From NCBI GenBank assembly GCA_021157805.1, contig JAGGVW010000250.1, forward strand, positions 1 to 12,420: a stretch of 12,420 bases of DNA. Direction: 5' to 3'. This document shows, in pieces, positions 1-12,420 of this stretch. The position numbers and the translations under genes were made by a program. Under the pieces are notes generated by a model. That model saw only the letters and a list, made by a program, of their open reading frames with translations, was not told the origin of the DNA and did no database searches. This stretch comes from a bacterium. Lineage in GTDB: Bacteria; Ratteibacteria; UBA8468; B48-G9; JAFGKM01. Positions within the stretch are counted from its first letter, which is position 1. The number at the start of each line of letters is the position of its first letter.

Positions 1-1248
1 ATAAATTTATGTTTTACATCTTCCATCATTATTACTCTTTCACTTCTTTTTATAATTTATATTTTAAGTTCTTTCATCCCTCATTTTCTTTCTCTTCAAT
101 CAAAATGGTTCTGGGTATGGACACTTCTTAAATTTACTTTCCCATATCTCATTTTTATTTCTCTCGCTTCTTTGAATATGGGAATTTTAAATGTCCATAA
201 AAAATTTTTACTCCCTTCATTTTCCCCTGTGATACTTGACATATTCTGGATTGGTTCTCTTTTTCTACTCCTGCCACTTTTTGGAAATTCACTTAATGAA
301 AGAATTTTTGGTTTATGTTTTGGGATAATTGGCGGAGGTCTTTTTCAATTTCTCTATCTTCTCCCTATTATTAAAAAAATGGGGTATTCTTATAAACTGG
401 ATTTCAATTTTTCCCATCCCGCTATAAGAAAAATGGGAAGATTAATTCTACCTGTTGTTGCCGGTGTTGCCGTTGTTCCAATAAACTTACTTGTTGATTA
501 TTCTCTTGCAGGGACTTTATTCAATGGTGCTGTTTCTGGTTTATGGTATGCTACAAGAATATTCCAACTTCCACTCGGTGTTTTCGCTATTTCAATTTCT
601 ACTGCTTCTCTACCTTATTTTTCAGAAAATATAGTAACAAAAAATTTTGAACAATTTAAAGAAAACTTTTATTTTGCAATGAAATTATTATTCTTTATAC
701 TTGTTCCTTTCACATTTGGAATTATTCTTTTTAAAACTGAAATAATCACTTTCCTGTTTAAAAGAGGACTTTTTACAGATAAATCAGTTAATATTGTCTC
801 TTTCCCCCTTATGTTTTATTCAATAGGACTTGCTGGATACGGTGGTATTTCTGTTCTTACTCGTGCTTTTTACGCTTTTGGAGATACATCTACCCCTGTT
901 AAAATTGGAATTTTTAGTATATTGGTAAATTTTGTTCTTGATGTTATACTTATGAAATTTCTATCACATGGAGGAATTGCTCTTTCTACTTCTGCAGTTG
1001 GTTTTACAAACTTCTTTCTCCTTTATATCCTTTTTATAAAAAAGCATATTTCTCTTAACAATAAAAAAGTAATCTCTTATTTTTCAAAATCACTTATTTC
1101 TTCCTTAATTATGGCTTTTTTTATTATGTTTTTTAGAACAGGTTTTTATTATTTGCCATTGCCAATTTTTCTCATCACCGGTATAATTTCAGCAGTTATA
1201 ATTTATTTTTTAATCTGGAAAATAACTGAAAAGGTGAAAATATGGTAA
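1..1248 (+). CDS. murJ: Lipid II flippase MurJ (MviN), 5'-truncated by window edge
   Basis: This reads open from base 1 in frame 1, so the true start lies upstream and about 415 residues are visible, against a usual length near 450-520. MurJ is an inner-membrane MOP-superfamily flippase that moves lipid II outward for peptidoglycan synthesis. The visible part is almost entirely hydrophobic helices. It carries family-typical stretches: SLNMGILNVHKKF followed by LPSFSPV, then LWYATRIFQLPLGVFAISIS and the downstream ASLPYFSE. An internal TTG at 172 could be mistaken for a start, but the family-like sequence (FPYLIFISLASLN) continues upstream of it. The stop overlaps the next gene by 7 nt, suggesting translational coupling. 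Arginine is almost all AGA/AGG. MurJ is the best call; a related polysaccharide flippase is less likely given these motifs. Confidence 0.93.
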   Translation: MNLCFTSSIIITLSLLFIIYILSSFIPHFLSLQSKWFWVWTLLKFTFPYLIFISLASLNMGILNVHKKFLLPSFSPVILDIFWIGSLFLLLPLFGNSLNERIFGLCFGIIGGGLFQFLYLLPIIKKMGYSYKLDFNFSHPAIRKMGRLILPVVAGVAVVPINLLVDYSLAGTLFNGAVSGLWYATRIFQLPLGVFAISISTASLPYFSENIVTKNFEQFKENFYFAMKLLFFILVPFTFGIILFKTEIITFLFKRGLFTDKSVNIVSFPLMFYSIGLAGYGGISVLTRAFYAFGDTSTPVKIGIFSILVNFVLDVILMKFLSHGGIALSTSAVGFTNFFLLYILFIKKHISLNNKKVISYFSKSLISSLIMAFFIMFFRTGFYYLPLPIFLITGIISAVIIYFLIWKITEKVKIW

Positions 1249-1844
1249 TAAATATAATTCTTTTATTTATCCTTTTTTTCTCAGTAGTTATTCACGAAAT
1301 CTCACATGGATATGTTGCTCACTTAAATGGAGACGATACAGCAAAAATAATGGGAAGATTAACTTTAAATCCAATTCCTCATATTGACCCTTTCGGAACA
1401 ATAATTCTTCCTTTTATTCTTTTTATTTTTCATTCAGGTATCATAATTGGCTGGGCAAAACCTGTTCCAATAAATCCATTCAATTTCAGAAATCAGGATA
1501 AAGGAATGCTTACAGTCGGACTTGCAGGCCCTTTAAGCAATATAATTCTTGGAACCATTTTTGCTTTAATTGTAAGATTTATACCTTCGGGAGTAGGTAA
1601 AACAATATTTCTATATGCTGCCTATATAAATTACATCCTTGCATTTTTCAATCTTATACCAATTCCACCTCTTGATGGCTCAAGAATTTTATCTGTTTTT
1701 CTCCCCTACAATGTAAGAATAAAATATGAAAGTATTGAAAGATATGGAATTTTTATAGTTATCATTGTTCTTTTCCTTTTCAACTTAATAAATCTTTTAT
1801 TTACTCTTACAAAATTGATAGTAAATCCTATAGCAGGAGTTTAA
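1242..1844 (+). CDS. Site-2 protease family protein (M50B, Rip2/YwhC-like)
   Basis: This is a 200-residue intramembrane zinc metalloprotease of peptidase family M50. The HExxH motif is HEISH at residues 18-22, inside the first membrane helix. The third zinc ligand is the Asp of NLIPIPPLDGSRIL (D145). The middle carries the family-typical NPIPHIDPFGTI and GWAKPVPINPFNF stretches and a GLAGPLSN helix start. No PDZ domain is present, and the short form matches the Rip2/YwhC group rather than RseP. The ATG at 1242 has an AAGGTG ribosome site five bases upstream, and the gene overlaps the murJ stop by 7 nt. Such proteases cut membrane-embedded substrates; the substrate here is unknown. Fold and catalytic type are secure. 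Confidence 0.92.
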   Translation: MVINIILLFILFFSVVIHEISHGYVAHLNGDDTAKIMGRLTLNPIPHIDPFGTIILPFILFIFHSGIIIGWAKPVPINPFNFRNQDKGMLTVGLAGPLSNIILGTIFALIVRFIPSGVGKTIFLYAAYINYILAFFNLIPIPPLDGSRILSVFLPYNVRIKYESIERYGIFIVIIVLFLFNLINLLFTLTKLIVNPIAGV

Positions 1845-1878
1845 CCAGAACCTGGTCCTCCGAAAGGGCTTATAAGGG

Positions 1879-1884
1879 TATAAT
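1879..1884 (+). promoter_or_regulatory. Possible -10 box (TATAAT) upstream of the DUF1844 gene
   Basis: A perfect TATAAT lies 25 bases before the ATG at 1910, in the only gap between the M50 and DUF1844 genes. It would give a leader of about 20 nt that just includes the ribosome site. No good -35 box is visible at 16-18 bp spacing (the region reads TCCTCC), so the promoter is uncertain. Confidence 0.4.
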
Positions 1885-1909
1885 TTATTAAAAAGGAGGA
1901 GGGAAAGAA

Positions 1910-2233
1910 ATGAAAGAAGATTTATTCAAATTTGTTATTTCTTTTTTTGCTAACTGGGGATGGCAAACACTGGGGAAAATACCTGACCCTGTTTCAAGAA
2001 AAACACAGAAGAATCTTGAAATGGCAAATAATATAATTGAAATTCTCATAATGTTAGAGGAAAAAACGAAAGGAAATCTTACAGAAGAAGAAGCGCGGAT
2101 TTTAAAAACTACAATTACAGACCTTCAACTCAATTATGTAGATGAATTAGAAAAAGAGAAGAATAAAGAAAAAAGTAAAAGTGAAGAAAATGAAGAGGGA
2201 GGAAATAAAGAAAAAACTAAAAACAATTCCTGA
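1910..2233 (+). CDS. DUF1844 domain-containing protein
   Basis: This is a 107-residue soluble protein whose first 80 or so residues match my memory of the DUF1844 family: LFKFVISFFANWGWQTLGKIPDP, then MANNIIEILIMLEEKTKGNLTEEEARILKTTITDLQLNYV (here split by key blocks: KIPDP, EEKTKGNLTEEE, LQLNYV). The family has no firm function. The last 25-30 residues are a Lys/Glu/Asn-rich tail with no recognisable fold; its coding region overlaps the beginning of uvrC by about 44 nt. The ATG follows a very strong AAAAAGGAGGAGG site at 1890-1902, so expression may be high. Domain assignment is fairly secure; function unknown. Confidence 0.8.
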   Translation: MKEDLFKFVISFFANWGWQTLGKIPDPVSRKTQKNLEMANNIIEILIMLEEKTKGNLTEEEARILKTTITDLQLNYVDELEKEKNKEKSKSEENEEGGNKEKTKNNS

Positions 2234-3629
2234 TTGTCCTGGTGTTTATTTAATGAAAGATGAAAAGGGCGATGTTATTTATGTTGGTAAGGCAATCTCT
2301 CTTTCAAGAAGAATAAGGTCTTATTTTTACCCATCAGGTAATGATACAAAAGTTTTAATTCTTTCTGAACAGATAAATGATTTTGAAGTAATTCCAGTTG
2401 CTTCAGAAGCAGAAGCACTAATCCTTGAAAATAAATTAATTAAAGAATATCAACCAAAATACAACACAAATTTGAAAGATGGGAAGAGTTATCCTTATTT
2501 AAAAATAACATCTGAAAAATTTCCATCAGTTCAAATTGTGAGAGAAAAAAAAGATAACAAATCAATATATTTCGGTCCATTTACAAATGTTAAGTTATTA
2601 AAAGAAACAGTAAGATTTTTGAGAAAGTTTTATCCAGTAAGAAATTGCAAAAAAAACATATACAATGGGAAAACAAAACTATGCACACAATTTTATATTG
2701 GAATGTGCTCGGGTCCCTGTGAAAATAAAATATCAGAAGAAGAATACAGAAAATATATTGAAGGAATTGTTGCTTTTTTTAAAGGAAGTTATAGAGAATT
2801 TGAAAAAAATTTAAGGATATGGATGTATGAAGCAATAAGAAAACTTGATTTTGAAAAAGCAGAAAAATTGAAACAGAGATTATTCTTACTTGAAAAGATG
2901 AAGGAAAAATTTCCTTTTAGAGATGAAGAAACATTATTTTCCTATGGAGAGGAAAATGTTCTTTTTTCTCTTTCCAGAATATTAAACTTAAAAAAAATTC
3001 CTTACCATATTGAAGGTTATGATATCTCAAATATTTCAGGAGACCTTGCTGTTGGAAGTAAAGTTTCATTTAAAGGCGGAATCCCTGATAAGAAAGAGTA
3101 CAGAAGATTTAAAATTAAAAATGTTGAGGGAATTGATGATTATAAAATGTTACAGGAAGTTATAAAAAGAAGGTTTGATTCACCTGAAGAAAGGAAAAAT
3201 TTACCTGACTTAATTCTTATAGATGGAGGGAAAGGGCAACTAAATTCTGTTATTGAAAAACTGAAAGAAATGGAAATTGATATTCCTGTTATTTCAATAG
3301 CAAAAAAATTTGAGGAAATATATCTGCCTTATAAAAACTTACCATTGAAATTACCTGATGACAGTCCTGTTTTAAATCTCATAAAAAATATAAGAAATGA
3401 AGCACATAGATTTGCCATTTCTTACCACAGGAAATTAAGGGAGAAAAAACTGAAATTGTCATTTCTTGATGAAATAAAGGGTGTTGGAGAAAAAACAAAG
3501 AAAAAGATTTTAAATTATTTCAATGACTTTTCTTCTCTTAAAGATGCAGATATTGAAACATTGAAAAAACTCGGGATAAAAGAAAAAATTGCTGAAGAAA
3601 TTATAAAAAAAGCAAAAGAGATTCTTTAA
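2190..3629 (+). CDS. uvrC: Excinuclease ABC subunit C, compact form
   Basis: UvrC makes the dual incisions in nucleotide excision repair with UvrA and UvrB. From the ATG at 2190 it has 479 residues: a GIY-YIG nuclease (about 10-90, with PGVYLMKD and VIYVGKA), four cysteines C153/C165/C173/C177 in the spacing of the UvrC Fe-S site, a UVR motif (about 205-240, KLDFEKAEKLKQR), an RNase H-like nuclease with GYDISNISG (D278), LILIDGGKGQL (D345) and NEAHRF (H406), and a C-terminal helix-hairpin-helix region (IKGVGEKTKKKIL). The usual family length is about 560-620; the missing part lies between the UVR motif and D278. The start is unclear: GTG at 2181 is in frame, ATG at 2190 fits the family N-terminus better, and neither has a good ribosome site. 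Every arginine codon is AGA or AGG. Confidence 0.95.
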   Translation: MKREEIKKKLKTIPDCPGVYLMKDEKGDVIYVGKAISLSRRIRSYFYPSGNDTKVLILSEQINDFEVIPVASEAEALILENKLIKEYQPKYNTNLKDGKSYPYLKITSEKFPSVQIVREKKDNKSIYFGPFTNVKLLKETVRFLRKFYPVRNCKKNIYNGKTKLCTQFYIGMCSGPCENKISEEEYRKYIEGIVAFFKGSYREFEKNLRIWMYEAIRKLDFEKAEKLKQRLFLLEKMKEKFPFRDEETLFSYGEENVLFSLSRILNLKKIPYHIEGYDISNISGDLAVGSKVSFKGGIPDKKEYRRFKIKNVEGIDDYKMLQEVIKRRFDSPEERKNLPDLILIDGGKGQLNSVIEKLKEMEIDIPVISIAKKFEEIYLPYKNLPLKLPDDSPVLNLIKNIRNEAHRFAISYHRKLREKKLKLSFLDEIKGVGEKTKKKILNYFNDFSSLKDADIETLKKLGIKEKIAEEIIKKAKEIL

Positions 3630-3643
3630 ATCACAAATTTCTA

Positions 3644-3660
3644 TTTGACATATAGTCAAA
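3644..3660. promoter_or_regulatory. Inverted repeat (candidate operator) overlapping the -35 box
   Basis: TTTGAC-ATATA-GTCAAA is a perfect inverted repeat with 6-bp arms and a 5-bp centre. It covers the whole -35 hexamer and part of the spacer, a classic position for a dimeric repressor site. Part of the left arm is forced by the TTGACA consensus, so chance cannot be excluded. No regulator gene is seen nearby. Confidence 0.5.
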
Positions 3661-3672
3661 CAGCATTATAAT
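3645..3672 (+). promoter_or_regulatory. Near-consensus sigma70-type promoter for the five-gene block
   Basis: TTGACA (3645-3650) and TATAAT (3667-3672) are both perfect and separated by 16 bp. Transcription would begin near 3679, giving a leader of about 44 nt before the ATG at 3723. It is the best promoter in the window and sits in the 93-base gap after uvrC. Confidence 0.85.
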
Positions 3673-3722
3673 TCATATTGTTTTCTTATATTTTGGTATT
3701 AAAGATAAAAAAAGAAAGAAGA

Positions 3723-4865
3723 ATGAACTCAAAAGAAAGGGTAGAAAAGACATTTAAAAAAGAAGAAACAGATAAAATTCCTATAAATCATCGGGGATTT
3801 TCTTCTAAAATTGCTTCTTACATTTTAGGAAGAGAGGCATTTGTTGGTGGGGGAGTTCAACAATGGAGAGAAGCAAAATCTTTATGGGAAGGATGGCATG
3901 ATGAATATCTTGAAAGGTCATTCAGGGATGCAATAGATATCGCTCTTATAACAGGACAGGATATCATTCGTGCTTCTTACTGGAGAGCACCACAAAAACC
4001 CACAAAAAAGATTGACGAATATACCTATCTTTATGAATATGGGGAAGAAAAAGATTGGAGAGTTTTAAAGTATGACCCAGTAAGTGAACAGGCAAACTTT
4101 TTCTACTATCATCCCAGGGAACTTACATTAGAGGAGATAAGAAAAGAAGTTAAAGAAGGAGAGAAGAATTTATATTCTTATAAACCTAAAGAGGAAAATT
4201 ATTCTTTTCAGATAAAGGCACAAAAGATGTTTGGTAAAGAAAAAGTAATAGAAAATTATGGTGTAACTGTGGGAATTCCTATGAGGCAAGCAAATGTCTG
4301 GCTTGAAGCGATGTTACTTGACCCCGGGTTGGTTAAATCTTTCATTTCCCAGCAGGTAGAAATAGCTAAAAAAAATGTAGAATTTTTGAGTAAATTAGGG
4401 TTCCGCTATTTTTTTGGAGGATTAGATTTTGCTTCTGAGCAAGGACCAATGTTTTCTCCTAAACTTTTTAGAGATTTGATTTTACCTGGTTTAAGAAAAG
4501 TATCTGAAATTTGCCATAAGTATAATGGTTATCATCTTTTTGCCAGTGATGGTAATCTTTGGCCAGTAAGTGATATGCTTTTTGGAGAATCTGGAATTGA
4601 CGGATACTATGAAATTGATAGAAAAGCAGGAATGGATTTAGAGAAATTAAGAAAAAAGTATCCTGATTTAACTTTAATAGGCAACATCAGTTCATGGACT
4701 TTGAGCACAGGAAGTAAAGAAGATGTGAAAAGAGAAGTTTTGTCGTGCATAGAAACTGCAAAAAAATATAAAGGGATAATTGTAGGAGTTTCAAATTATA
4801 TACTTCCTGAAACTCCAGTTGAGAATGTAGAAGAGATGTTAAAACTTTTAAGTGAGATGAGATAA
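3723..4865 (+). CDS. Uroporphyrinogen decarboxylase/MtaA-family (URO-D fold) protein
   Basis: This 380-residue protein has the URO-D superfamily outline: N-terminal NSKERVEKTFKKEETDKIPI, a TIM-barrel body, and a C-terminal IGNISSWTLSTGSKEDVKREV block ending in ILPETPVENVEEML. Members include haem-pathway HemE and corrinoid methyltransferases such as MtaA. In the methyltransferases a His-x-Cys-Gly segment binds zinc; the aligned segment here is ASDGN (residues 274-278), so those ligands are absent and methyltransfer cannot be assumed. Nothing in the context points to haem synthesis. I chose ATG 3723 over an in-frame TTG at 3678 because the predicted transcription start is near 3679 and the family N-terminus begins here. 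First gene of the block. Family is fairly secure, reaction unknown. Confidence 0.82.
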   Translation: MNSKERVEKTFKKEETDKIPINHRGFSSKIASYILGREAFVGGGVQQWREAKSLWEGWHDEYLERSFRDAIDIALITGQDIIRASYWRAPQKPTKKIDEYTYLYEYGEEKDWRVLKYDPVSEQANFFYYHPRELTLEEIRKEVKEGEKNLYSYKPKEENYSFQIKAQKMFGKEKVIENYGVTVGIPMRQANVWLEAMLLDPGLVKSFISQQVEIAKKNVEFLSKLGFRYFFGGLDFASEQGPMFSPKLFRDLILPGLRKVSEICHKYNGYHLFASDGNLWPVSDMLFGESGIDGYYEIDRKAGMDLEKLRKKYPDLTLIGNISSWTLSTGSKEDVKREVLSCIETAKKYKGIIVGVSNYILPETPVENVEEMLKLLSEMR

Positions 4866-4885
4866 AATGAATTTTAAATATTTAA

Positions 4886-4914
4886 TTCCAAATTTGACGA
4901 AAAGGATATATAAT
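4886..4914 (+). promoter_or_regulatory. Weak possible internal promoter
   Basis: The 93-base gap before the first amidohydrolase gene contains TATAAT at 4909-4914 with only a poor TTCCAA at 17-bp spacing. A TTTGAC at 4893-4898 matches one arm of the inverted repeat at 3644-3660 but is too close to be its -35. The gap is wide for this tight block, which is the main reason to list it. Confidence 0.25.
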
Positions 4915-4958
4915 AATTCTTCTTCTAAAAAACATTTTGATAAAAAGGTTAATTTGAA

Positions 4959-5738
4959 ATGTTAATAATTGATATTCATACTCATAATCGTTTATGTAAA
5001 CAGCCATTCAAGAGAATGGAAGAAACTATTCGGCTGGCTAAAAAGTTTGGGATTAATAAACTCTGTTTATTAGGTGATGTTCTCCATTTTGGATACAATC
5101 CTTCTCCAGAACAGATTAAAAAAATTAATGATTTAACTATAAAATTTGTGAGAAAATGGCCAGAATTTTTAATTGGTTTTTGTTTTCTTAATCCCAGACA
5201 TAATAAGAAATTTATCTTTGATGAAATAGAACGTTGTATTATAAAAGAGAGATTTAAGGGAATAAAGTTAGAAATATCAGTCAATGCTCGTGATAAGAGA
5301 TTAGACCCAATTATGAAAAAAGCAGAGGAACTTAATATAGTTGTTTTACATCATTCCTGGGATACTTCTATAATCGGTAGAAAGATAAAAAATGGTGGTT
5401 ATCAATCAGACCCTTCAGATATTGCTGATCTGGCTCGGCGATTTCCAAATGTTAAGATTATTATGGCACATTTATCCGGTGGAGGAATAAAAGGCATTCT
5501 TAAGATTAAACCATTTTCTAATGTTTGGGTTGATACTTCAGGTTCTCAACCTTTTTCAGGAATAATAGAATATGCTGTAAAAGAATTAGGTCCAGAGAGA
5601 ATTTTATATGGTTCGGATATACCTGGGCGTGATTTCTCTTCTCAATTAGGTCGTATCTATGGTGCAAAAATAAAGGAAAAAGAAAAAAGATTAATTTTAG
5701 GAGAAAATGCCAAAAAACTTTTAGGAGAAAAAAGTTAA
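4959..5738 (+). CDS. Amidohydrolase-2 family metal-dependent hydrolase
   Basis: This 259-residue TIM-barrel protein belongs to the amidohydrolase-related family 2, which includes hydrolases, decarboxylases and lactonases acting on aromatic or sugar-acid substrates. The metal-site residues are present: HTH at residues 7-9 (IDIHTHN), H131/H132 in VVLHHSW, H171 in IMAHLSGGG and D220 in LYGSDIPGRDF. No signal peptide is present, so it should be cytoplasmic. The ATG follows AAAAAGG at a fair distance. About half of its 16 arginine codons are CGN, quite unlike uvrC and obg. It begins with nearly the same bases as the gene at 9729, suggesting the two are related. Family secure, substrate unknown; a sugar-lactone or uronate substrate would fit the neighbouring lyase-like gene but is inference. 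Confidence 0.88.
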   Translation: MLIIDIHTHNRLCKQPFKRMEETIRLAKKFGINKLCLLGDVLHFGYNPSPEQIKKINDLTIKFVRKWPEFLIGFCFLNPRHNKKFIFDEIERCIIKERFKGIKLEISVNARDKRLDPIMKKAEELNIVVLHHSWDTSIIGRKIKNGGYQSDPSDIADLARRFPNVKIIMAHLSGGGIKGILKIKPFSNVWVDTSGSQPFSGIIEYAVKELGPERILYGSDIPGRDFSSQLGRIYGAKIKEKEKRLILGENAKKLLGEKS

Positions 5739-5751
5739 AAAGGAAATAAGA

Positions 5752-8658
5752 ATGAAAGACCCAAGATTGAAGAAAGAAATTCCACTTTCAGAAATATTGA
5801 AATTAATAGGTACTTCTTATAAAGAACATCCTTATACAGGAATGTTTTCCAGAAAAGATTTTATTCAAATAAAGAAGTATATCAAAAAATACCCATGGGC
5901 GAAGGATGCTTTTGAGAAAATAAAAAAGGATGCAGATTACTGGGTATCAAAAAGTGATGAAGAAATTTACAATTTTATTCCCCCAGAAAATCCAAGAGCA
6001 TACTGTCCATGTTATGCTTTTGGTTGTCCTATATGTGGAACAGGGAATGTGTTATCTACCAAGGAGGTATTGGCTACAAGTCTTGAAACACCAAATAAAT
6101 GGAGATGTGTATCCTGTGGTAGATGGTTTGGTCCTGGTGAAGAAATAGAATATCAGGGAAAAAGATTTAAAATAATAGATGATGATTCTGGCTGGAAAGT
6201 TCCTGAAGGGCTGCCTGGTGCCGGATATAAATATTATTTTGTTGCTTCCTATAGAACATACAAATTATATCTTTTGTTTGCCTCACATAGAGCAATTACT
6301 ATAAAAGGTTATTTCCATCCTAAAAGTGCTGTTGGAACACTTGTTACTGTTTATGCAATTACCGGGGATACGAGATATGCACATAAGGCTCTTTTAATCT
6401 TAAACAGGGTTGCACAATTATATCCGACATATGATGGGATGATTGATATAGGTAATGAAAGTTATATGCCACATATTAGCTGGACAACTGCTGGAGAAGA
6501 AGATATTGTTGATGAGTCCTGTTATGCCTATGATATTGTTTTTGACTATCTTCCAAAAGATAAGGAGTTGATAAAATTTTTCAAAAGAAAAGGTCACAAA
6601 GATTTGGATGGAGATGGAAAAATTACCTGGGAAGATATACGGCGTAATATTGCAATAAATCTTTTTGGATATATGTATGAATGGCTTTTACGCACAAGGA
6701 GAACCTGTCTTGGTTCTGACTGGATAATCCACCATGCTGCTCAGATGGCACTTATTGGTAGAATACTTGAAAATCCTGATATTGTTTATGAGGCATTGGA
6801 AGGAAAATCAGGATTTAGGGAACTAATGCGTAAATTCTGCTATAATGATGGTAGATTCTGGTATAATTCTCTTGGTTATCATTTTGGTAAATTGGGTTCT
6901 TTTGGAAAAGTAGATTCTGTAGTTAATGGTTACTGTGATGGGAAAAGATTTAAAGAGCCTATTGACCTTTTTAATGATAAAACTATTATTTTGGAACATA
7001 TGGCAAATTATTCACAGGGAATAATATGTAATGGCAGAATTCCAGGAATAGGAGACCAGCGAATAGTAAGAGAAAAGATAGACCCATCTATTGATAAAAG
7101 CCCTGTTCAGTCTCTTGCAACTATACTTCCAAGGTATCCGTACTTAGCACATAGTATTGAAAATAAAGATAATTTTATAAAAAATCTAATTGCTGGTTTA
7201 AATAATAACAAGATTTCTGAAGCGATTGAGTTGATTCTCCGGATTCCTGAAATAGAAAAGGTTGTGAAAAGTTCTTCTTTCAGACCTCAAAGATCAACCC
7301 TATTTACAGATACAGGTCTTGCAATACTGAGAACATCTCATAAAGGAATAAAACAGGTTCATGCAATACTAAATTATGGAGTAGATGGCGAGACACACAG
7401 CCATCATGACCAATTGGCATTAAATATTATTGCTTACGGATACGAATTAACAATAAATAAAGGTTATCCTTATACCTGGGAAGACAAAACAGGCAAAGTT
7501 TCTGATTGGATAATGAATACAGCAGCCCAGAATGTGGTCCTTATTGATGGTAAAAATCAAACAACATACGGATTTGACAAACCTTTACAACAATACGCAG
7601 GGGAACTCCATACTTACCAGGATAATAAACTTTTAGGAATAGTTGATGGTTCTAATGAAAAAGTATATCCTTGCCTTGCAACTTTATACAGAAGAGCAAT
7701 ATTTCTTATAAAAGATCCGGAATATCCATTCATAGTAGATATTTTTAATGTTACTGGAGGAAATATTCGTGATTACCAGTTTCATGCCCAGTCAGATATA
7801 GAAGGGAAAAACTTTAAGATTAAATTTAAAGATGGAACAAAACTTAAAAAAGTTAAAAAAACTCCATTGTTTATAGATAGTCGTTTTATGTATGATATAA
7901 AATCAGCAGATACACAGGGAGATTTTACTGCTTATTGGTGGATAGGAGATAAGGAGAATACAGGAATAGTTTTGCATATGTTGAACAATGGAGGAGTGAA
8001 ACGAACTATAATTACAGGTAAAGGTCAAGCAGAAGGTAGTAATAAACTTATTCCATGCGACCCACATCTTATTGTTAGGGAAAAAGGGAATAAAAATAGT
8101 CAGTTTGTTTCAGTAATATTTCCATATTGCGGTTCAGTTCCCCAATACACAATTGAATCTCTAAGTGATAAGGATGGAATTGTTGCCTTATGCATTACTT
8201 TGGGTAAGAAAAAGTATTTTGTCTTTTATGACTCCAAATGCAGGAAAAAGCACCTTTTTATCTATAACCAACATTATTATACTTTCCTTGGTATTGCTGG
8301 TGTTATTTTAGAAAAAAACAATCAAATTAAGGCAATTTCATTATCCTGTGGGAAATTATTGGGAAGAGATGATACTGTAATTGAATTAGATTCTATAAAA
8401 GAAGGTAAAGTAGTATCAATAAATGAAGAAGAAGAAAAAAGTATTATCGTTGAAGGAATTGGTTTTCCTTCTAAATTACCATCTCTATTAAAATGGAGTA
8501 ATAAACCATGGGTTTACAGAGTAATTAGGGTTAGGAAGAATGGTAATAGACTGAAAATGTATTTAGATACATTCTCTTTCATAGATAGAGGTAAGGAGCA
8601 ACTGATTCAAAAAAATGATAGGGTATTTTTTATCCCTGAAACTTATAAAACTTTATAA
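5752..8658 (+). CDS. Heparinase II/III-family protein, cytoplasmic, with Cys cluster
   Basis: This 968-residue protein resembles polysaccharide lyases of the heparinase II/III type: a helical toroid region (about 130-490) followed by beta-rich domains. The family-defining C-terminal stretch is DGETHSHHDQLALNI (H549, H551, D553) followed by an INKGYPYTW segment. The toroid contains GSDWIIHHAAQMALIG (around 322-337). Two insertions stand out: cysteines C85/C87/C92/C95 and C119/C122, which look like a zinc ribbon, and an EF-hand-like loop DLDGDGKITWED (284-295). No signal peptide or lipobox is visible (MKDPRLKKEIPLSEIL), whereas lyases of this family are normally exported. AAGGA at 5740-5744 sets the ATG. 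It is the largest gene of the block. Family likely; lyase activity and substrate (an acidic glycan) are inferred. Confidence 0.85.
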   Translation: MKDPRLKKEIPLSEILKLIGTSYKEHPYTGMFSRKDFIQIKKYIKKYPWAKDAFEKIKKDADYWVSKSDEEIYNFIPPENPRAYCPCYAFGCPICGTGNVLSTKEVLATSLETPNKWRCVSCGRWFGPGEEIEYQGKRFKIIDDDSGWKVPEGLPGAGYKYYFVASYRTYKLYLLFASHRAITIKGYFHPKSAVGTLVTVYAITGDTRYAHKALLILNRVAQLYPTYDGMIDIGNESYMPHISWTTAGEEDIVDESCYAYDIVFDYLPKDKELIKFFKRKGHKDLDGDGKITWEDIRRNIAINLFGYMYEWLLRTRRTCLGSDWIIHHAAQMALIGRILENPDIVYEALEGKSGFRELMRKFCYNDGRFWYNSLGYHFGKLGSFGKVDSVVNGYCDGKRFKEPIDLFNDKTIILEHMANYSQGIICNGRIPGIGDQRIVREKIDPSIDKSPVQSLATILPRYPYLAHSIENKDNFIKNLIAGLNNNKISEAIELILRIPEIEKVVKSSSFRPQRSTLFTDTGLAILRTSHKGIKQVHAILNYGVDGETHSHHDQLALNIIAYGYELTINKGYPYTWEDKTGKVSDWIMNTAAQNVVLIDGKNQTTYGFDKPLQQYAGELHTYQDNKLLGIVDGSNEKVYPCLATLYRRAIFLIKDPEYPFIVDIFNVTGGNIRDYQFHAQSDIEGKNFKIKFKDGTKLKKVKKTPLFIDSRFMYDIKSADTQGDFTAYWWIGDKENTGIVLHMLNNGGVKRTIITGKGQAEGSNKLIPCDPHLIVREKGNKNSQFVSVIFPYCGSVPQYTIESLSDKDGIVALCITLGKKKYFVFYDSKCRKKHLFIYNQHYYTFLGIAGVILEKNNQIKAISLSCGKLLGRDDTVIELDSIKEGKVVSINEEEEKSIIVEGIGFPSKLPSLLKWSNKPWVYRVIRVRKNGNRLKMYLDTFSFIDRGKEQLIQKNDRVFFIPETYKTL

Positions 8659-8679
8659 AACTTATACTGGAGGTGAAAT

Positions 8680-9735
8680 ATGGTAGAAGTGATAAAGACA
8701 AATTTTAGGAAATATTATTGGGATATCTATTATGGACGAGAGGAAATATCTATAAAATCTATAGAAGAACTTCCTGGTGATGAAATTGGAGTTAAACTTA
8801 TTTTGCAAGCAAATATGCAGAATTTTTCCTATTTTCTTTATTCCGTAAATGGAAAGAAATTTCGCAAATCTTCCACTTGTGATATTACAGTAAATTTTGA
8901 AGATAATGCATTCCATCAGGAGACAACTGTAGTAGTAAAAACAGTGTCTAAAGGAAAAAAGAGTTCAAATTCCTATACCATTAAATTTAAGTATTATCCA
9001 AAAAAATTTTATGAAGCACACCGTATGAAAAATTGCCCCAACATTATTATAGTGGAAAGTAGTCCACCATTAAATTTTCTTTCCAGTTCAGTGGAAGATT
9101 GGATATCTTACATACCGACAGAAGAAGAAAAAAAATATGCTTTGAGAAAATGGGGTAATTTAATTAGAGGAATTAATTCGGAATACCAAAAAGCTAAGGT
9201 ATTGGCTAAATCTTTAATGGATGACCTTTGGCCACATGACGGTATGCCATCCGATGAAATGACGAAACTTTCACCTTTTGAACAATATGAACGAATGGTT
9301 ACAGGAAAAGATAAAGGTTTTTGTAGTCAATTTGCATCTATCTTTGTTTGCGCTTGTAACTGCCTTGGAATTTCTGCTCGCAGGATCCATACAGAGCAGA
9401 TTCATTCTACATCCAATAAATGTAGAATTCAATTGGGCGAAATGCATGGCACAACCGAAATATTTGATAATGGACTGAACCAATGGATATGGATGGACTT
9501 AAGATATTATGCTCTTGGGGCATACTTAGGTAAAGAAGGTCCACTCAATATGGTTGAATTTCATCTTTTTCTTAATCAACAGGAAAGAAGAAAAAGACTT
9601 AAACTGCTTATTTATGACCTTGAAACTAAATCGGAAAAAATGCTACCATTGAACAAATGTCCAAAGAGAAACTTCAGTTGTTATGAGGGATGGGATAAAG
9701 AATTTCATTATTCAAAAACTAAAGAAAAATGTTAA
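8680..9735 (+). CDS. Transglutaminase-like superfamily protein
   Basis: This 351-residue protein has a beta-rich N-terminal part (about 10-115, Ig-like in pattern) and a C-terminal transglutaminase-like core. The triad can be read: C215 in KGFCSQFASIF, H256 in LGEMHGTTEIF and D273 in QWIWMDLRY. Bacterial members are mostly proteases, amidases or cross-linkers, and the fold also occurs in peptide:N-glycanase. No signal peptide is visible, so it is probably cytoplasmic. A strong GGAGGTG site at 8669-8675 fixes the ATG, and the gene starts 21 bases after the heparinase-like stop. It overlaps the following amidohydrolase-like gene by 7 nt. Five CGN arginine codons set it apart from the housekeeping flanks. 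Fold is well supported; reaction unknown. Confidence 0.83.
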   Translation: MVEVIKTNFRKYYWDIYYGREEISIKSIEELPGDEIGVKLILQANMQNFSYFLYSVNGKKFRKSSTCDITVNFEDNAFHQETTVVVKTVSKGKKSSNSYTIKFKYYPKKFYEAHRMKNCPNIIIVESSPPLNFLSSSVEDWISYIPTEEEKKYALRKWGNLIRGINSEYQKAKVLAKSLMDDLWPHDGMPSDEMTKLSPFEQYERMVTGKDKGFCSQFASIFVCACNCLGISARRIHTEQIHSTSNKCRIQLGEMHGTTEIFDNGLNQWIWMDLRYYALGAYLGKEGPLNMVEFHLFLNQQERRKRLKLLIYDLETKSEKMLPLNKCPKRNFSCYEGWDKEFHYSKTKEKC

Positions 9736-10484
9736 TTGATATTAATGTTTCTTTTGGGAACTGGCCATTTCAGAAATTTTTGTTTGATACGCCTGAGAAA
9801 TTAGCGAGACATTTAAAGAAAGAAGGGATTTCTATAGCTTTTGTCTCTCCAATTGAATCTGTGTTTTATCCGGACCCTGATGTTTACAATAAAATCCTTT
9901 TTAAAAAATTAAAGATATTTCCTTCCCTTATTCCGATACCTGTTATTAACCCTTTTCTTTCTAACTGGAAAGAACTTTTTAAAGAATATGTTGCTTATAA
10001 AAAAATCAAAACCATTAAGATTTTGCCAAATTATCATAATTACTCTCTCTTGTCAGAATCTGTTAATGAGATGATGAAGGAACTCACAGAAAGGAAAATA
10101 CCTTTGATAATTCAGATACGGTTAGAAGATGAAAGAAACCAATATCCACTCCTTAAAATTAAAGGGGTAAAAATAGAAGAAATTATTAAACTGGCTAACC
10201 ATTTTCCTCAAGTTCCAGTTATCTGCCTGTGTCCATATTTTTCAGAGGCAATTTTATTAGTCAAAGAGACAGAAAATATTTATGTAGATATATCTTTTGT
10301 AGAATGTCTGGATACCATTGTTACCTTGTTAAAGGAAATTCCTGCAAGGAGGGTTCTTTTTGGTAGTCATACCCCATTTTTATATACCCGCTCTGCAGTG
10401 ATGAAAATTAAATCTGCAGATATTTCTGAAAAAGATATACAGGCAATTACATTCAAAAACTTATGGGACTTATTGAAATTATAA
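9729..10484 (+). CDS. Amidohydrolase-like protein lacking usual metal ligands
   Basis: This 251-residue protein aligns by outline with the amidohydrolase at 4959: strand-like IDINVSFGNWPF at the N-terminus, then IPLIIQIRLED, VPVICLCPYFS, NIYVDISF and VLFGSHTPFLYT. At each place where the relative has a metal residue the residue differs: HxH is NxS, the two later His positions are Gln and Cys/Pro, and GSD is GSH. From memory, a DxNxxxGxWPF subgroup of this family exists in PVC bacteria, so this may be a known divergent clade rather than decay; the frame is intact. The start overlaps the transglutaminase stop by 7 nt, suggesting coupled translation. It may be a non-metal enzyme, a binding protein or a partner of its relative. 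Fold likely, function unknown. Confidence 0.7.
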   Translation: MLIDINVSFGNWPFQKFLFDTPEKLARHLKKEGISIAFVSPIESVFYPDPDVYNKILFKKLKIFPSLIPIPVINPFLSNWKELFKEYVAYKKIKTIKILPNYHNYSLLSESVNEMMKELTERKIPLIIQIRLEDERNQYPLLKIKGVKIEEIIKLANHFPQVPVICLCPYFSEAILLVKETENIYVDISFVECLDTIVTLLKEIPARRVLFGSHTPFLYTRSAVMKIKSADISEKDIQAITFKNLWDLLKL

Positions 10485-10504: not shown

Positions 10505-10533
10505 TTCATATCTCTTCCTTAATATGGTATAAT
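10505..10533 (+). promoter_or_regulatory. Extended -10 promoter for the obg operon
   Basis: TGGTATAAT places a TGn element directly before a perfect TATAAT (10528-10533). TTCATA at 10505-10510 is a four-of-six -35 match at 17-bp spacing. The leader to the ATG at 10577 would be about 37 nt. It separates the accessory block from the obg operon. Confidence 0.75.
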
Positions 10534-10576: not shown

Positions 10577-10819
10577 ATGAGTGGAAATTGCTTAATAAGG
10601 GAAATATTAAATTTTGGTTATGGAAGTATGAGATATTTTTCAAAAAATGCAAAAAAAATTTTTGAAGAAATAAAGGAAGAAGCAAAAAAATCAGACCATT
10701 CCGACTTTATAAAAATTTGTGAGAAGGTTCGGGAAATACCCAAAACAATTACAAAAAGATTTATTAAAAATCTTGGCTTTATAACTGAAGAGGACTTAAA
10801 AGAAAATAAGAAGAAGTGA
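10577..10819 (+). CDS. Small charged helical protein, possibly phasin-like
   Basis: This 80-residue Lys/Glu-rich protein is probably mostly helical, with an N-terminal amphipathic stretch (LIREILNFGYGSMRYFSKN). The end, FIKNLGFITEEDLKENKKK, resembles the LGLPTREDVEEL region of small phasin-like proteins from memory, but the match is weak and there is no polyhydroxyalkanoate gene in the window. It is a real gene by signal: a very strong AAAAAGGAGGAGG site at 10561-10573, an upstream extended -10 promoter, and a 4-nt GTGA overlap with obg. It heads the obg operon. Function not assigned. Confidence 0.75.
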   Translation: MSGNCLIREILNFGYGSMRYFSKNAKKIFEEIKEEAKKSDHSDFIKICEKVREIPKTITKRFIKNLGFITEEDLKENKKK

Positions 10820-11808
10820 AAAATTTCATTGATGAAGTAAAAATAAAGGTAAAAGCAGGAAGAGGGGGGGATGGTTGTGTTGCTTTCAGAAGAGAAAAAG
10901 GAGTTCCAAAAGGTGGACCCTCTGGAGGAGATGGGGGGAAAGGCGGAGATATAATTTTCATTGGAAATAAAAATATGAGAACACTTATTGATTTTTATTA
11001 TCAACAGTTTTTAAAAGCAGAAAATGGAAAACCAGGAAGTGGAAATAACAAAAAGGGAAAAGATGGGAAAAATCTTGATGTTTTTGTTCCCTGTGGAACA
11101 GTTATAAAAGAAATAGAAAACAATGAAGAAAAAATAATTGGTGAAATACTTAAAGATGGAGAAAGAATTGTTGTAGCAAAAGGAGGAAAAGGAGGAAAAG
11201 GAAATACAAATTTTAAATCATCAACAAATCAGGCCCCAAGAATTGCAACAAAAGGAGAGCAGGGTGAAGAGAGAGAATTAAAACTGGAGTTAAAACTTAT
11301 TGCAGATGTTGGAATTGTAGGATATCCAAACGCTGGAAAGTCAACATTGATATCAAAAATTTCAAATGCGAGAGTAAAAATTGCCCATTATCCTTTTACT
11401 ACTTTAATTCCCAATTTGGGAGTTGTAAAACTTACTAACTTCAGAAGTTTTGTAGTTGCGGATATACCAGGAATTATTGAAGGTGCATCAGATGGGAAAG
11501 GACTTGGAATAAAATTTTTAAAACATATAGAGAGAACAAAAGTTTTACTCCACCTTATTGACCTTTCTCAATCTAATATTGTTGAAAGATATTATAAACT
11601 GAGAGAAGAACTGAAAAGATATAGTGAAAAACTTGCTGAAAAAGAAGAGATAATTGTTGGCAATAAGATAGACATTGAAACAGCAAGAGAGAACATTAAA
11701 ATTTTAAAAGAAAATTTCAAAGAAGTTTATTTTATTTCGTCTTTAACTGGAGAAGGTATTAAAGAATTAGAGGAGGTTATCTGGAATAAACTGGAGAGAA
11801 AAATATGA
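10816..11808 (+). CDS. obg: GTPase Obg (CgtA)
   Basis: Obg is an essential GTPase that binds the 50S subunit and acts in ribosome maturation and stress control. The 330 residues comprise the glycine-rich Obg domain (about 1-158, starting FIDEVKIKVKAGRGGDGCV) and a G domain: G1 GYPNAGKST (169-177), G2 YPFTTLIPNLG, G3 DIPG (216-219), G4 NKID (283-286) and G5 SSLTGEG (from about 308). There is no C-terminal OCT domain, which is optional in the family. The start is GTG, overlapping the upstream stop as GTGA; the stop overlaps the prfB ATG as ATGA, so all three genes look translationally coupled. All arginine codons are AGA/AGG. Confidence 0.97.
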   Translation: MKNFIDEVKIKVKAGRGGDGCVAFRREKGVPKGGPSGGDGGKGGDIIFIGNKNMRTLIDFYYQQFLKAENGKPGSGNNKKGKDGKNLDVFVPCGTVIKEIENNEEKIIGEILKDGERIVVAKGGKGGKGNTNFKSSTNQAPRIATKGEQGEERELKLELKLIADVGIVGYPNAGKSTLISKISNARVKIAHYPFTTLIPNLGVVKLTNFRSFVVADIPGIIEGASDGKGLGIKFLKHIERTKVLLHLIDLSQSNIVERYYKLREELKRYSEKLAEKEEIIVGNKIDIETARENIKILKENFKEVYFISSLTGEGIKELEEVIWNKLERKI

Positions 11809-12420
11809 GTGTTGAACCTGGACAGTTAAAAGAATTGTATGAAAAATTAAAAGAAAAATGGGAAAACTTATGTAATAAATATAACTTGAAAAAGAAAGAA
11901 GAAGAATTTAAATTGCTTGAAAAGGAAAGAGAAAAGAAAGGATTCTGGCATCCAAAAGAAGATAAGGAAAAATTTGAGAAATGGAATATATTAAGCACTG
12001 ATGTTGAGAAAATAAAAGAAATAGAAAATAAATTTTCTGAACTTGAAACAATTTTTGAACTTCTTGAAACCAATCCTGATAGAGAACTTGAAAATGAAGC
12101 GAAAAAGATAATTGAAAAACTGGAAAAAGAAATTCCTTCTCTAAAAATAAGATTTATGTGGAAAGATGAAACTGATAAAAAGAATGCAATTATCACTTTA
12201 CACGCAGGAGCAGGAGGAACTGAAGCATGTGACTGGGTAAGTATGTTATGGAGAATGTATAGCAAATGGGCTTCAAGGAATGGATTTAATGTCAAAATTG
12301 TTGATTTCCTTCCTGGTGAAGAGGCAGGAATAAAAAGAATAACAGGTATAATTTCAGGACAATATGCCTATGGATACCTTAAAGGTGAAAATGGTGTTCA
12401 TCGACTTGTAAGAATATCTC
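11805..12420 (+). CDS. prfB: Peptide chain release factor 2, 3'-truncated by window edge
   Basis: RF2 recognises UAA and UGA and triggers peptide release. About 205 residues are visible: an N-terminal coiled-coil (about 1-120, with KKGFWHPKEDKEKFEKWN) and the beginning of the core, LHAGAGGTEACDWVSMLWRMYSKWA, then FLPGEEAGIKR and ENGVHRLVRIS. The SMLWRMY and GTEACDW blocks distinguish it from RF1. The specificity loop and GGQ motif lie beyond the window. The ATG overlaps the obg stop (ATGA), and an AGGAGG-containing stretch near 11770 is too far upstream to be its site, so coupling is likely. The frame is open from the ATG into the core with no in-frame TGA, so no programmed frameshift is needed here. 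Confidence 0.96.
   Translation, partial: MSVEPGQLKELYEKLKEKWENLCNKYNLKKKEEEFKLLEKEREKKGFWHPKEDKEKFEKWNILSTDVEKIKEIENKFSELETIFELLETNPDRELENEAKKIIEKLEKEIPSLKIRFMWKDETDKKNAIITLHAGAGGTEACDWVSMLWRMYSKWASRNGFNVKIVDFLPGEEAGIKRITGIISGQYAYGYLKGENGVHRLVRIS

What the first reader, a model, noticed from the sequence alone, without database searches (positions are those of the whole stretch)
3645..10484. Five-gene accessory block with foreign-looking arginine codons between housekeeping genes
Seen: uvrC and obg use only AGA/AGG for arginine by my reading, while the five genes between them use many CGN codons (8 of 16 in the gene at 4959, about nine in the heparinase-like gene, five in the transglutaminase-like gene). 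The block has its own strong promoter, no signal peptides, no transporter and no regulator. Inference: it was acquired horizontally, or is under different translational selection, and forms a cytoplasmic module for handling an acidic glycan or glycoconjugate. The combination of URO-D-like, two amidohydrolase-like, heparinase-like and transglutaminase-like proteins is not a pathway I recognise.
Basis: partly seen in the sequence, partly recalled or inferred. Interest (0 to 1): 0.7.

Follow-up and report, generated by a model that had tools for sequence, protein, structure and literature searches.

The report
Imported sugar-breakdown operon with dummy-enzyme partner
Between two ordinary housekeeping genes of an uncultured bacterium sits a block of five genes that looks imported from other bacteria; it seems to break down an acidic sugar polymer, and its two related hydrolases belong to a widespread pair in which one partner has lost its metal-binding active site, a partnership that we did not find described.

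Summary
The five genes at 3645-10484 use CGN arginine codons 27 of 100 times, against 4 of 66 in the window's other genes and 179 of 2,893 in accessory-type loci of the six nearest held relatives. In 12 of 16 usable uvrC neighbourhoods of relatives obg follows uvrC without the block; none of the 16 has the block. Lyase, transglutaminase-like protein and one amidohydrolase are as close to proteins of other phyla as to the kin's, or closer. Horizontal gain is well supported.

The five-gene order was found nowhere else, but a core recurs: a heparinase II/III-type lyase plus the amidohydrolases. These are the new part. One (4959-5738) keeps its metal ligands; the other (9729-10484) has lost them. 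Of 34 such pseudoenzymes counted in this phylum, 31 lie directly beside an HxH-bearing partner; 28 of 28 returned loci in three other phyla are paired or fused. All 12 complete fusions counted have HxH in exactly one half. The pseudoenzyme is under purifying selection.

Best reading: a horizontally moved glycan-catabolism operon built round an obligate amidohydrolase heteromer. Heteromer and transfer are likely; substrate and reaction are inferred. No mobile-element hallmark was seen.

The parts
3645..3672 (+). promoter-like TTGACA-16-TATAAT in the gap after uvrC
   Evidence: 12 of 12 consensus bases; only exact match in the window; function not tested
3723..4865 (+). URO-D superfamily protein, 380 aa, not HemE and not MtaA by curated cut-offs
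   Evidence: PF01208 63.6 bits vs cut-off 23.9; HemE 11.8 vs 302.95, MtaA 33.1 vs 400; best full-length hit 91%, a 24-member cluster
4959..5738 (+). AmH1: Amidohydro_2 protein with metal ligands intact (H7, H9, H132, H171, D220)
   Evidence: PF04909 104.4 bits vs 26.4; ligands invariant in 8 aligned window-type sequences; 62-63% identical in G003
5752..8658 (+). heparinase II/III-superfamily polysaccharide lyase-like protein, 968 aa, short form without the N-terminal extension of several relatives
   Evidence: PF07940 44.7 bits vs 24; closest solved relatives by sequence PL17 alginate lyases; nine relatives 47-67% identical
8680..9735 (+). transglutaminase-like protein, 351 aa; Cys215, His256, Asp273 conserved
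   Evidence: PF01841 27.8 bits vs 23; the three residues invariant in the 31 proteins aligned, of 49 found; strand-rich N-terminal part in the model
9729..10484 (+). AmH2: Amidohydro_2 pseudoenzyme, metal ligands replaced (first His to Asn, last Asp to His)
   Evidence: PF04909 29.4 bits vs 26.4; ligand positions N, S, (I)Q, C, H; 47% to G003, 52% to a Verrucomicrobiia copy
3630..10484 (+). the inserted block between uvrC and the orf80-obg-prfB genes
   Evidence: uvrC to obg without block in 12 of 16 usable relatives' neighbourhoods, 0 of 16 with the block
10505..10533 (+). promoter-like site (TTCATA-17-TATAAT with TG) just before orf80, where the nearest kin have orf80 abutting or overlapping uvrC
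   Evidence: 10 of 12 consensus bases; kin sequences
10577..10819 (+). orf80, small conserved protein between uvrC and obg in kin; right border of the block
   Evidence: 38-43% identical copies in L074, L075, L076, L078, L079, and 30% in L080; no Pfam family

Best explanation
The block is an accessory glycan-catabolism operon gained horizontally and placed, with its own promoter, between uvrC and orf80-obg. Its core is a heparinase II/III-superfamily lyase plus an amidohydrolase heteromer: AmH1 is the metal-dependent catalytic subunit, AmH2 a metal-less pseudo-subunit that AmH1 needs for stability, substrate binding or control. The lyase cuts an acidic (uronate-containing) polymer or oligosaccharide; the AmH1-AmH2 complex then hydrolyses a lactone, amide or similar bond in a sugar-derived intermediate that in other genomes is also handled by aminotransferases, GFO/IDH/MocA oxidoreductases and xylose-isomerase-like enzymes. 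The URO-D-like and transglutaminase-like proteins are accessories whose link to this core is seen only here. Shown by sequence: insertion relative to kin, codon contrast, intact vs lost metal ligands, pairing and fusion, purifying selection. Inferred: complex formation, substrate, reaction, order of steps.
For: Empty site: uvrC and obg lie together without the block in 12 of 16 usable uvrC neighbourhoods. Codons 27/100 vs 179/2893. AmH2's nearest copy among ten compared is in a Verrucomicrobiia genome (52%) whose UvrC is only 40% identical to the window's; TG's nearest named relatives are Latescibacteria, Phycisphaerae and Planctomycetota (57-59%) while the kin genome G029 has a 41-44% copy. 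The three genomes with lyase relatives of 50-53% lie in three different phyla. Core linkage: L003 has AmH1-AmH2-lyase; L001 has the lyase followed by an AmH2-type start cut by the contig end (75.6 bits); the third, G002, has the lyase and a window-type pair on separate contigs; two Verrucomicrobiota loci have another heparinase II/III-type protein next to the pair. Pairing: 31 of 34 AmH2-type proteins directly adjacent to an HxH-bearing AmH1-type one, often with 4-base overlaps; 6/6, 12/12 and 10/10 returned loci in three other phyla. Of 12 complete fusions counted, 12 have HxH in exactly one half, 11 in the order AmH2-AmH1 and one AmH1-AmH2. AmH2 dN/dS 0.04-0.23 in four pairs of genomes. 19 of 36 pair or fusion loci have a PLP aminotransferase within two co-directional genes (19 of 100 neighbour proteins), vs 2 of 796 background ORFs.
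Against: The five-gene order was found nowhere else. The longest-contig lengths of the 9 other close lyase homologues equal none of those of the 48 transglutaminase-like homologues nor of the 120 of 635 URO-D ones listed. In the window the pair is split by two genes, the only one of 34 not adjacent without a contig end being at hand. URO-D-like and AmH2 do not show the codon contrast on their own. For AmH1, a tree holding window, G029, G027 and G020 together is not rejected (p = 0.115). No integrase, tRNA or significant terminal repeat marks an element. L002's 14.6 kb around its lyase holds no pair. Of six window-type pairs of the phylum only one (G029) has the aminotransferase neighbour. One of 19 AmH2-type proteins aligned (G006) keeps the second His of HxH. 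In G018 both genes of a pair are broken by stops, so the pair can be lost. Complex formation and activity are untested.
Confidence: 0.6

Rival explanations
1. AmH2 is not a helper but an enzyme of its own that works without the usual metals, acting next to AmH1 in one pathway; adjacency and fusion then reflect consecutive steps, not a pseudo-subunit.
For: AmH2 keeps invariant residues of its own in 8 window-type sequences (N6, W12, P13, R131, D134, R136) and is under purifying selection.
Against: The usual amidohydrolase chemistry needs metal ligands, of which 18 of 19 AmH2-type proteins aligned keep none and one keeps a single His; AmH1-type genes occur alone, but no AmH2-type gene was found clearly alone, as expected of an auxiliary subunit.
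Confidence: 0.25
2. The block is old and vertically inherited in this lineage and was lost by the sampled kin; its codons reflect weak translational selection.
For: The nearest held kin share only 69% of UvrC, so close sisters are missing. The URO-D family is expanded natively, up to 28 matches per genome.
Against: Accessory-type loci of kin have the same low CGN as housekeeping ones; 12 of 16 kin keep uvrC and obg together, and in the nearest five orf80 abuts or overlaps uvrC; lyase, TG and AmH2 similarities cross phyla.
Confidence: 0.12
3. The block is a composite: URO-D-like gene native (or from elsewhere), AmH1-lyase-TG-AmH2 imported separately.
For: URO-D-like codons are not distinct (3/19, p 0.11); a 93-base gap separates it from the tightly packed other four; its best-matching 90% cluster has 24 members while the lyase's has one.
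Against: None of 16 kin neighbourhoods has any block gene between uvrC and obg (weak URO-D paralogues of 26-33% lie elsewhere in the four loci where obg does not follow uvrC); no listed kin match to the URO-D protein exceeds 43% identity.
Confidence: 0.35
4. The window is a chimeric metagenome assembly, the block being spliced between uvrC and obg by the assembler.
For: The window is a 12,420-base contig and no reads are available; different codon usage inside.
Against: Both junctions keep intact genes on each side and have a promoter-like site before each gene set; the lyase is recorded on two contigs; the flanks are in the same order as in kin.
Confidence: 0.05

Closest known systems
Amidohydro_2 (PF04909) decarboxylases and hydrolases such as ACMSD and 2,3-dihydroxybenzoate decarboxylase
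   Same: AmH1 has the domain score and the metal ligands; the solved sequence matches are of this family
   Different: those are one gene product (recalled); here an intact and a ligand-less paralogue are neighbours or fused
Pseudoenzyme partners in the wider amidohydrolase superfamily (inactive dihydroorotase domains joined to aspartate transcarbamoylase; CRMPs) - recalled, not from a call
   Same: an inactive amidohydrolase-fold protein kept for a structural or regulatory role
   Different: there the partner is usually another enzyme or its own kind; here it is a paralogue of the active subunit, in sugar-catabolism gene neighbourhoods
Polysaccharide lyases of the heparinase II/III fold: PL17 (Alg17c, AlgL17), PL15 (Atu3025), PL12, PL33, PL40
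   Same: superfamily domain and predicted helical plus strand layout; the two conserved histidines H549 and H551 align with the GHGH stretch of AlgL17
   Different: 13-16% identity to the ten best structures; the oligoalginate lyase cut-off is far from met (22.5 vs 1400); 968 aa with a long C-terminal part
Catabolic clusters with a symporter (Verrucomicrobiota loci L256, L263)
   Same: heparinase-type protein and the amidohydrolase pair together
   Different: those add SSF symporter, aminotransferases and a PALP dehydratase (L263's symporter named by eye), absent from the window

Membership tests
Amidohydro_2 (AmH1) | curated Pfam score | tested here: met
   104.4 vs 26.4 bits
Amidohydro_2 (AmH1) | metal ligands HxH, His, His, Asp | tested here: met
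   H7, H9, H132, H171, D220; invariant in 8 aligned window-type sequences
Amidohydro_2 (AmH2) | curated Pfam score | tested here: met
   29.4 vs 26.4 bits, narrowly
Amidohydro_2 (AmH2) | metal ligands HxH, His, His, Asp | tested here: not met
   N, S, Q, C, H at those positions; hence called pseudoenzyme, not an active member
Heparinase II/III-type polysaccharide lyases | curated Pfam score of the C-terminal domain and fold | tested here: met
   44.7 vs 24 bits; 36 PDB matches with E <= 0.001, nearly all lyases of this general fold, plus dermatan sulfate epimerase and a hyaluronate lyase, in a model of mean pLDDT 64
Heparinase II/III-type polysaccharide lyases | catalytic Tyr/His/Asn set and lyase activity | tested here: inconclusive
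   H549, H551, Y572 and Y376 invariant in 10 sequences; the catalytic-site assignment is recalled and the N-terminal motif was not aligned; activity not testable here
PL17/PL15 oligoalginate lyase | NCBIfam equivalog cut-off | tested here: not met
   22.5 vs 1400 bits
Uroporphyrinogen decarboxylase HemE / MtaA methyltransferase | NCBIfam equivalog cut-offs | tested here: not met
   11.8 vs 302.95 and 33.1 vs 400 bits; only the URO-D superfamily domain is met
Transglutaminase-like superfamily | domain score and Cys-His-Asp triad | tested here: met
   27.8 vs 23 bits; C215, H256, D273 invariant in 31 of 31 aligned; that these form the triad is by family knowledge
Genomic island / mobile element | integrase or transposase, tRNA or direct-repeat borders | tested here: not met
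   no such ORF seen among the 17 listed (by eye), no tRNA, longest shared direct repeat at the borders 10 AT-rich bases
Enzyme-pseudoenzyme heteromer | physical complex and dependence of activity on the partner | not testable with these tools
   adjacency, overlap and fusion only

The most novel reading that the evidence does not exclude
AmH1-AmH2 is an undescribed class of catabolic enzyme: an obligate heteromer (or fused pseudo-dimer) of an active and a metal-less amidohydrolase, present in at least four phyla and repeatedly coupled to aminotransferases and to heparinase-type lyases, acting on an amino- or uronic-acid sugar intermediate; the window carries a horizontally moved operon built round it.
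Probability: 0.5. Interest if true: 0.65.

Novelty: new variant of a known kind. Interest (0 to 1): 0.55.

Why it matters
By family score both proteins would be called amidohydrolases. If one of each pair is a conserved non-catalytic partner, tests of either gene alone would fail, and the pair would help explain unassigned sugar-catabolism clusters in uncultured phyla. The ready-made fusions allow a direct test with a single gene. The block also gives a clean example of a catabolic module inserted into a conserved housekeeping gene array.

Tried and rejected
Rejected: (1) decaying pseudogene for AmH2 - dN/dS 0.04-0.23 in four pairs (two of the pairs differ very little and one has dS near 1); a broken pair does exist in G018. 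(2) Accessory genes generally richer in CGN - 179/2893 vs 73/1256 in kin. (3) Site-specific element - no borders; the 10-base repeat is expected by chance in sequence this AT-rich (own estimate, not a call). (4) HemE, MtaA, oligoalginate lyase as exact identities. (5) Viral-contig relatives of the lyase: none confirmed. (6) RNA families: none at gathering score.

Led nowhere: naming the phylum. The kin group of 35 held genomes has no names. One paper (PMC11071339, only two passages seen) was tried because of a hunch about Ratteibacteria and did not settle it; a search for the isolate name SKW160 found nothing. The lyase model is mediocre (pLDDT 64); the TG model (pLDDT 83) gave only weak, partial matches to transglutaminase-fold proteins. 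Literature: six searches aimed at the pair or its context (listings only) showed, by title and abstract start, no description of it; two of them returned no paper, and one search listed 12 of 17. The library lacks most subscription journals, so this is weak evidence of novelty. AU tests on AmH1/AmH2 are partly driven by the strong G020-G029 grouping and were not used as proof of transfer.
Full report
What was checked. The window holds murJ (cut), an M50 protease, a DUF1844 protein, uvrC, five block genes, a small gene (orf80), obg and prfB (cut), all on the plus strand (DUF1844 and block by Pfam, the others named by eye and by position in kin).

Background for the codons. No genome is held for the window. 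UvrC placed it among an unnamed phylum of 35 held genomes, reached through G003; 31 of the 35 gave a UvrC match, the nearest being G027, G029, G030 (69%), G026, G031 (68%) and G016 (66%). In these six, CGN is 73/1256 in housekeeping-neighbourhood loci and 179/2893 in accessory-type loci, so low CGN is general there. Block vs accessory: p = 2e-10. Three of five genes stand out one by one (4959 gene, lyase, TG). GC is 0.322 in the block, 0.289 and 0.307 on its sides. Kin with higher GC have more CGN anyway, for example 108/317 in G022's locus, so the contrast holds only against the near, AT-rich kin.

Empty site. Of the 31 genomes, 17 uvrC neighbourhoods were fetched at length; one (G018) is cut inside uvrC. 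Of the other 16, 12 have obg directly after uvrC (with orf80 matched between them in six), and four (G003, G011, G014, G035) have uvrC not followed by obg in the stretch fetched; none has the block, though those four hold weak URO-D paralogues (26-33%) some kilobases away. In the nearest kin orf80 abuts or overlaps the end of uvrC. The window instead has 7.2 kb between uvrC and obg, with a perfect consensus promoter match before the block and a 10-of-12 match before orf80.

Where the parts come from. The lyase has 15 other homologues at E <= 0.001 in about 5.8 billion proteins (7,999 candidates scored), nine of them 47-67% identical. A scan of the GTDB species genomes gave eight loci, of which three are close, 50-53%, in three different phyla: STF1_6 (G001), a Verrucomicrobiia bacterium (G002) and SKW160 (G003). 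Among the 35 kin genomes only G003 has it at full length; other matches are partial. TG relatives are spread over Latescibacteria, Phycisphaerae, Planctomycetota and others; two of 35 kin genomes have a match, and in G029 a 41-44% copy stands among housekeeping genes. The URO-D family is large and native: all 35 kin genomes have matches, up to 28 each, none of the listed ones over 43% identical to the window's, whose best full-length relative is 91%. AmH1 is closest to G003 (62-63%) and AmH2 to the Verrucomicrobiia genome (52%) among those compared. Clade tests reject a window-G029-G027 group for AmH1 and a window-G029 group for AmH2, but not a window-G029-G027-G020 group for AmH1 (p = 0.115). 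Taken together, transfer is likely; a single event for all five genes is not shown.

The amidohydrolase pair. In L003 the genes run AmH1, AmH2, lyase, a xylose-isomerase-like protein, a glycosidase-like protein and an oxidoreductase-like protein (the last three named by eye). Alignment shows two subfamilies. AmH1-type proteins keep HxH, His, His, Asp with few exceptions. Of 19 AmH2-type proteins in that alignment 18 keep none of the ligands and one (G006) keeps the second His; the first His is Asn in all 19 and in the 17 of alignment A3. More distant AmH2-type proteins have other letters there. With profiles of both types, 34 AmH2-type ORFs (score at least 100, window included) were found in the fetched loci of the phylum; 31 lie directly beside an AmH1-type gene with HxH on the same strand, mostly overlapping by 4 to 8 bases. 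The three others are the window (same operon, lyase and TG between), L193 (contig end, cannot tell) and L221 (a fusion cut by the contig end: its tail runs into an AmH1-type HxH start). A pair in G018, broken by stops in both genes, fell below the ORF count. AmH1-type genes do occur without AmH2.

Other phyla. With the AmH2 alignment, 3 of 3 genomes of G001's phylum, 48 of 240 of G002's (Verrucomicrobiota by its record title) and 53 of 64 of G004's (a Latescibacterota record) match at E <= 1e-25. These hits were not all classified one by one, and some are AmH1-type. The loci returned for the best hits were 6 of 6, 12 of 12 and 10 of 10 paired or fused; in one of them (L238) AmH2 is split over two frames. 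Twelve complete single-frame fusions were counted over all fetched loci; in each exactly one half has HxH. Eleven have the pseudo-half first; one (L278) has the intact half first, the gene order of the window type, so fusion happened in both orders. Only the HxH motif, not the whole ligand set, was used to judge the fusions and partners.

Selection. AmH2 dN/dS is 0.08, 0.13, 0.04 and 0.23 in four pairs of genomes (AmH1: 0.05, 0.07, 0.01, 0.19). AmH2 is kept, slightly less strictly than AmH1.

Neighbourhood. Among 100 neighbour proteins in the phylum: DegT aminotransferase 15, xylose-isomerase-like barrel 9, class-III aminotransferase 4, PALP 3, GFO/IDH/MocA 3, Hepar_II_III_C 3, the first 25 of 76 families being shown. 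A PLP aminotransferase lies within two co-directional genes in 19 of 36 pair or fusion loci (19 of 100 neighbours) and among 2 of 796 background ORFs (the profiles were built from the neighbours themselves, so the ratio is flattered). The link is weaker for the window's own subtype: of six window-type pairs of the phylum (L003, L144, L145, L146, L148, L149) only L145 has it, besides the cut locus L147 and, in another phylum, L252 and L258. Among 103 neighbour proteins of the other phyla: DegT 9, AraC-type helix-turn-helix 6-7, xylose-isomerase-like 6, SSF symporter 4, GFO/IDH/MocA 4, class-III aminotransferase 3, Hepar_II_III_C 2. In two Verrucomicrobiota loci (L256, L263) the pair shares a cluster with a heparinase II/III-type protein, a sodium:solute symporter, aminotransferases and a PALP dehydratase.

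Lyase and TG. The lyase profile matches PL17 alginate lyases (best E 5e-10) and an oligoalginate lyase (3a0o); Foldseek with a mediocre model ranks PL17 first, then ulvan, alginate, heparin and hyaluronan lyases. It belongs to the superfamily; no PL family can be assigned. Two homologues (P0003, P0004) and locus L001 have an N-terminal extension that begins with what looks like an export signal (by eye); in P0004 it matches PF06452. The window's copy lacks it and starts 13 bases after AmH1. TG has a conserved Cys-His-Asp set and a strand-rich part in front.

Mechanism. Most likely: the lyase makes short unsaturated or otherwise trimmed sugars; AmH1, with AmH2 as partner, opens a lactone or amide in a sugar-derived intermediate. 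The frequent aminotransferases suggest an amino or keto sugar. The step is inferred from neighbours; decarboxylation is also possible, since solved relatives of AmH1 include decarboxylases.

Verdict. Observation confirmed; horizontal gain likely; the combination is not a known pathway, but its core recurs. The real find is the enzyme-pseudoenzyme amidohydrolase pair, for which six literature searches of the held library gave no description.

Noticed in passing
window 2193-3629 and loci L081, L083, L084, L087, L089, L090: About eleven kin genomes have a UvrC frame of some 430-460 aa matching only residues 1 to about 420 of the window's 478-aa protein, so the C-terminal stretch is missing; in G017 a separate stretch on another contig matches residues 425-476.
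   Followed up: no
phylum of G003 (35 genomes): URO-D superfamily proteins are strongly expanded, up to 28 matches per genome, role not looked into.
   Followed up: no
window 1-2233 and 10577-12420: murJ, M50 protease, DUF1844, uvrC, (orf80), obg, prfB form a conserved gene array in much of this phylum; orf80 has no Pfam family.
   Followed up: partly
L153, L218, L222, L259, L261, L262, L264, L265, L266, L273, L278, L279: Single-frame fusions of the two amidohydrolase types, each with HxH in exactly one half.
   Followed up: yes
L085 9061-10170: A 369-aa relative of the block's transglutaminase-like protein stands among housekeeping genes in G029.
   Followed up: no
L154, L224 (G036): Two adjacent AmH1-type genes, both with HxH, without a pseudo-partner; in L154 one of them has Gly at the last ligand position: a possible earlier stage of the pair.
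   Followed up: no
L212 (G018): An amidohydrolase pair in which both genes are broken by stops; described only.
   Followed up: partly
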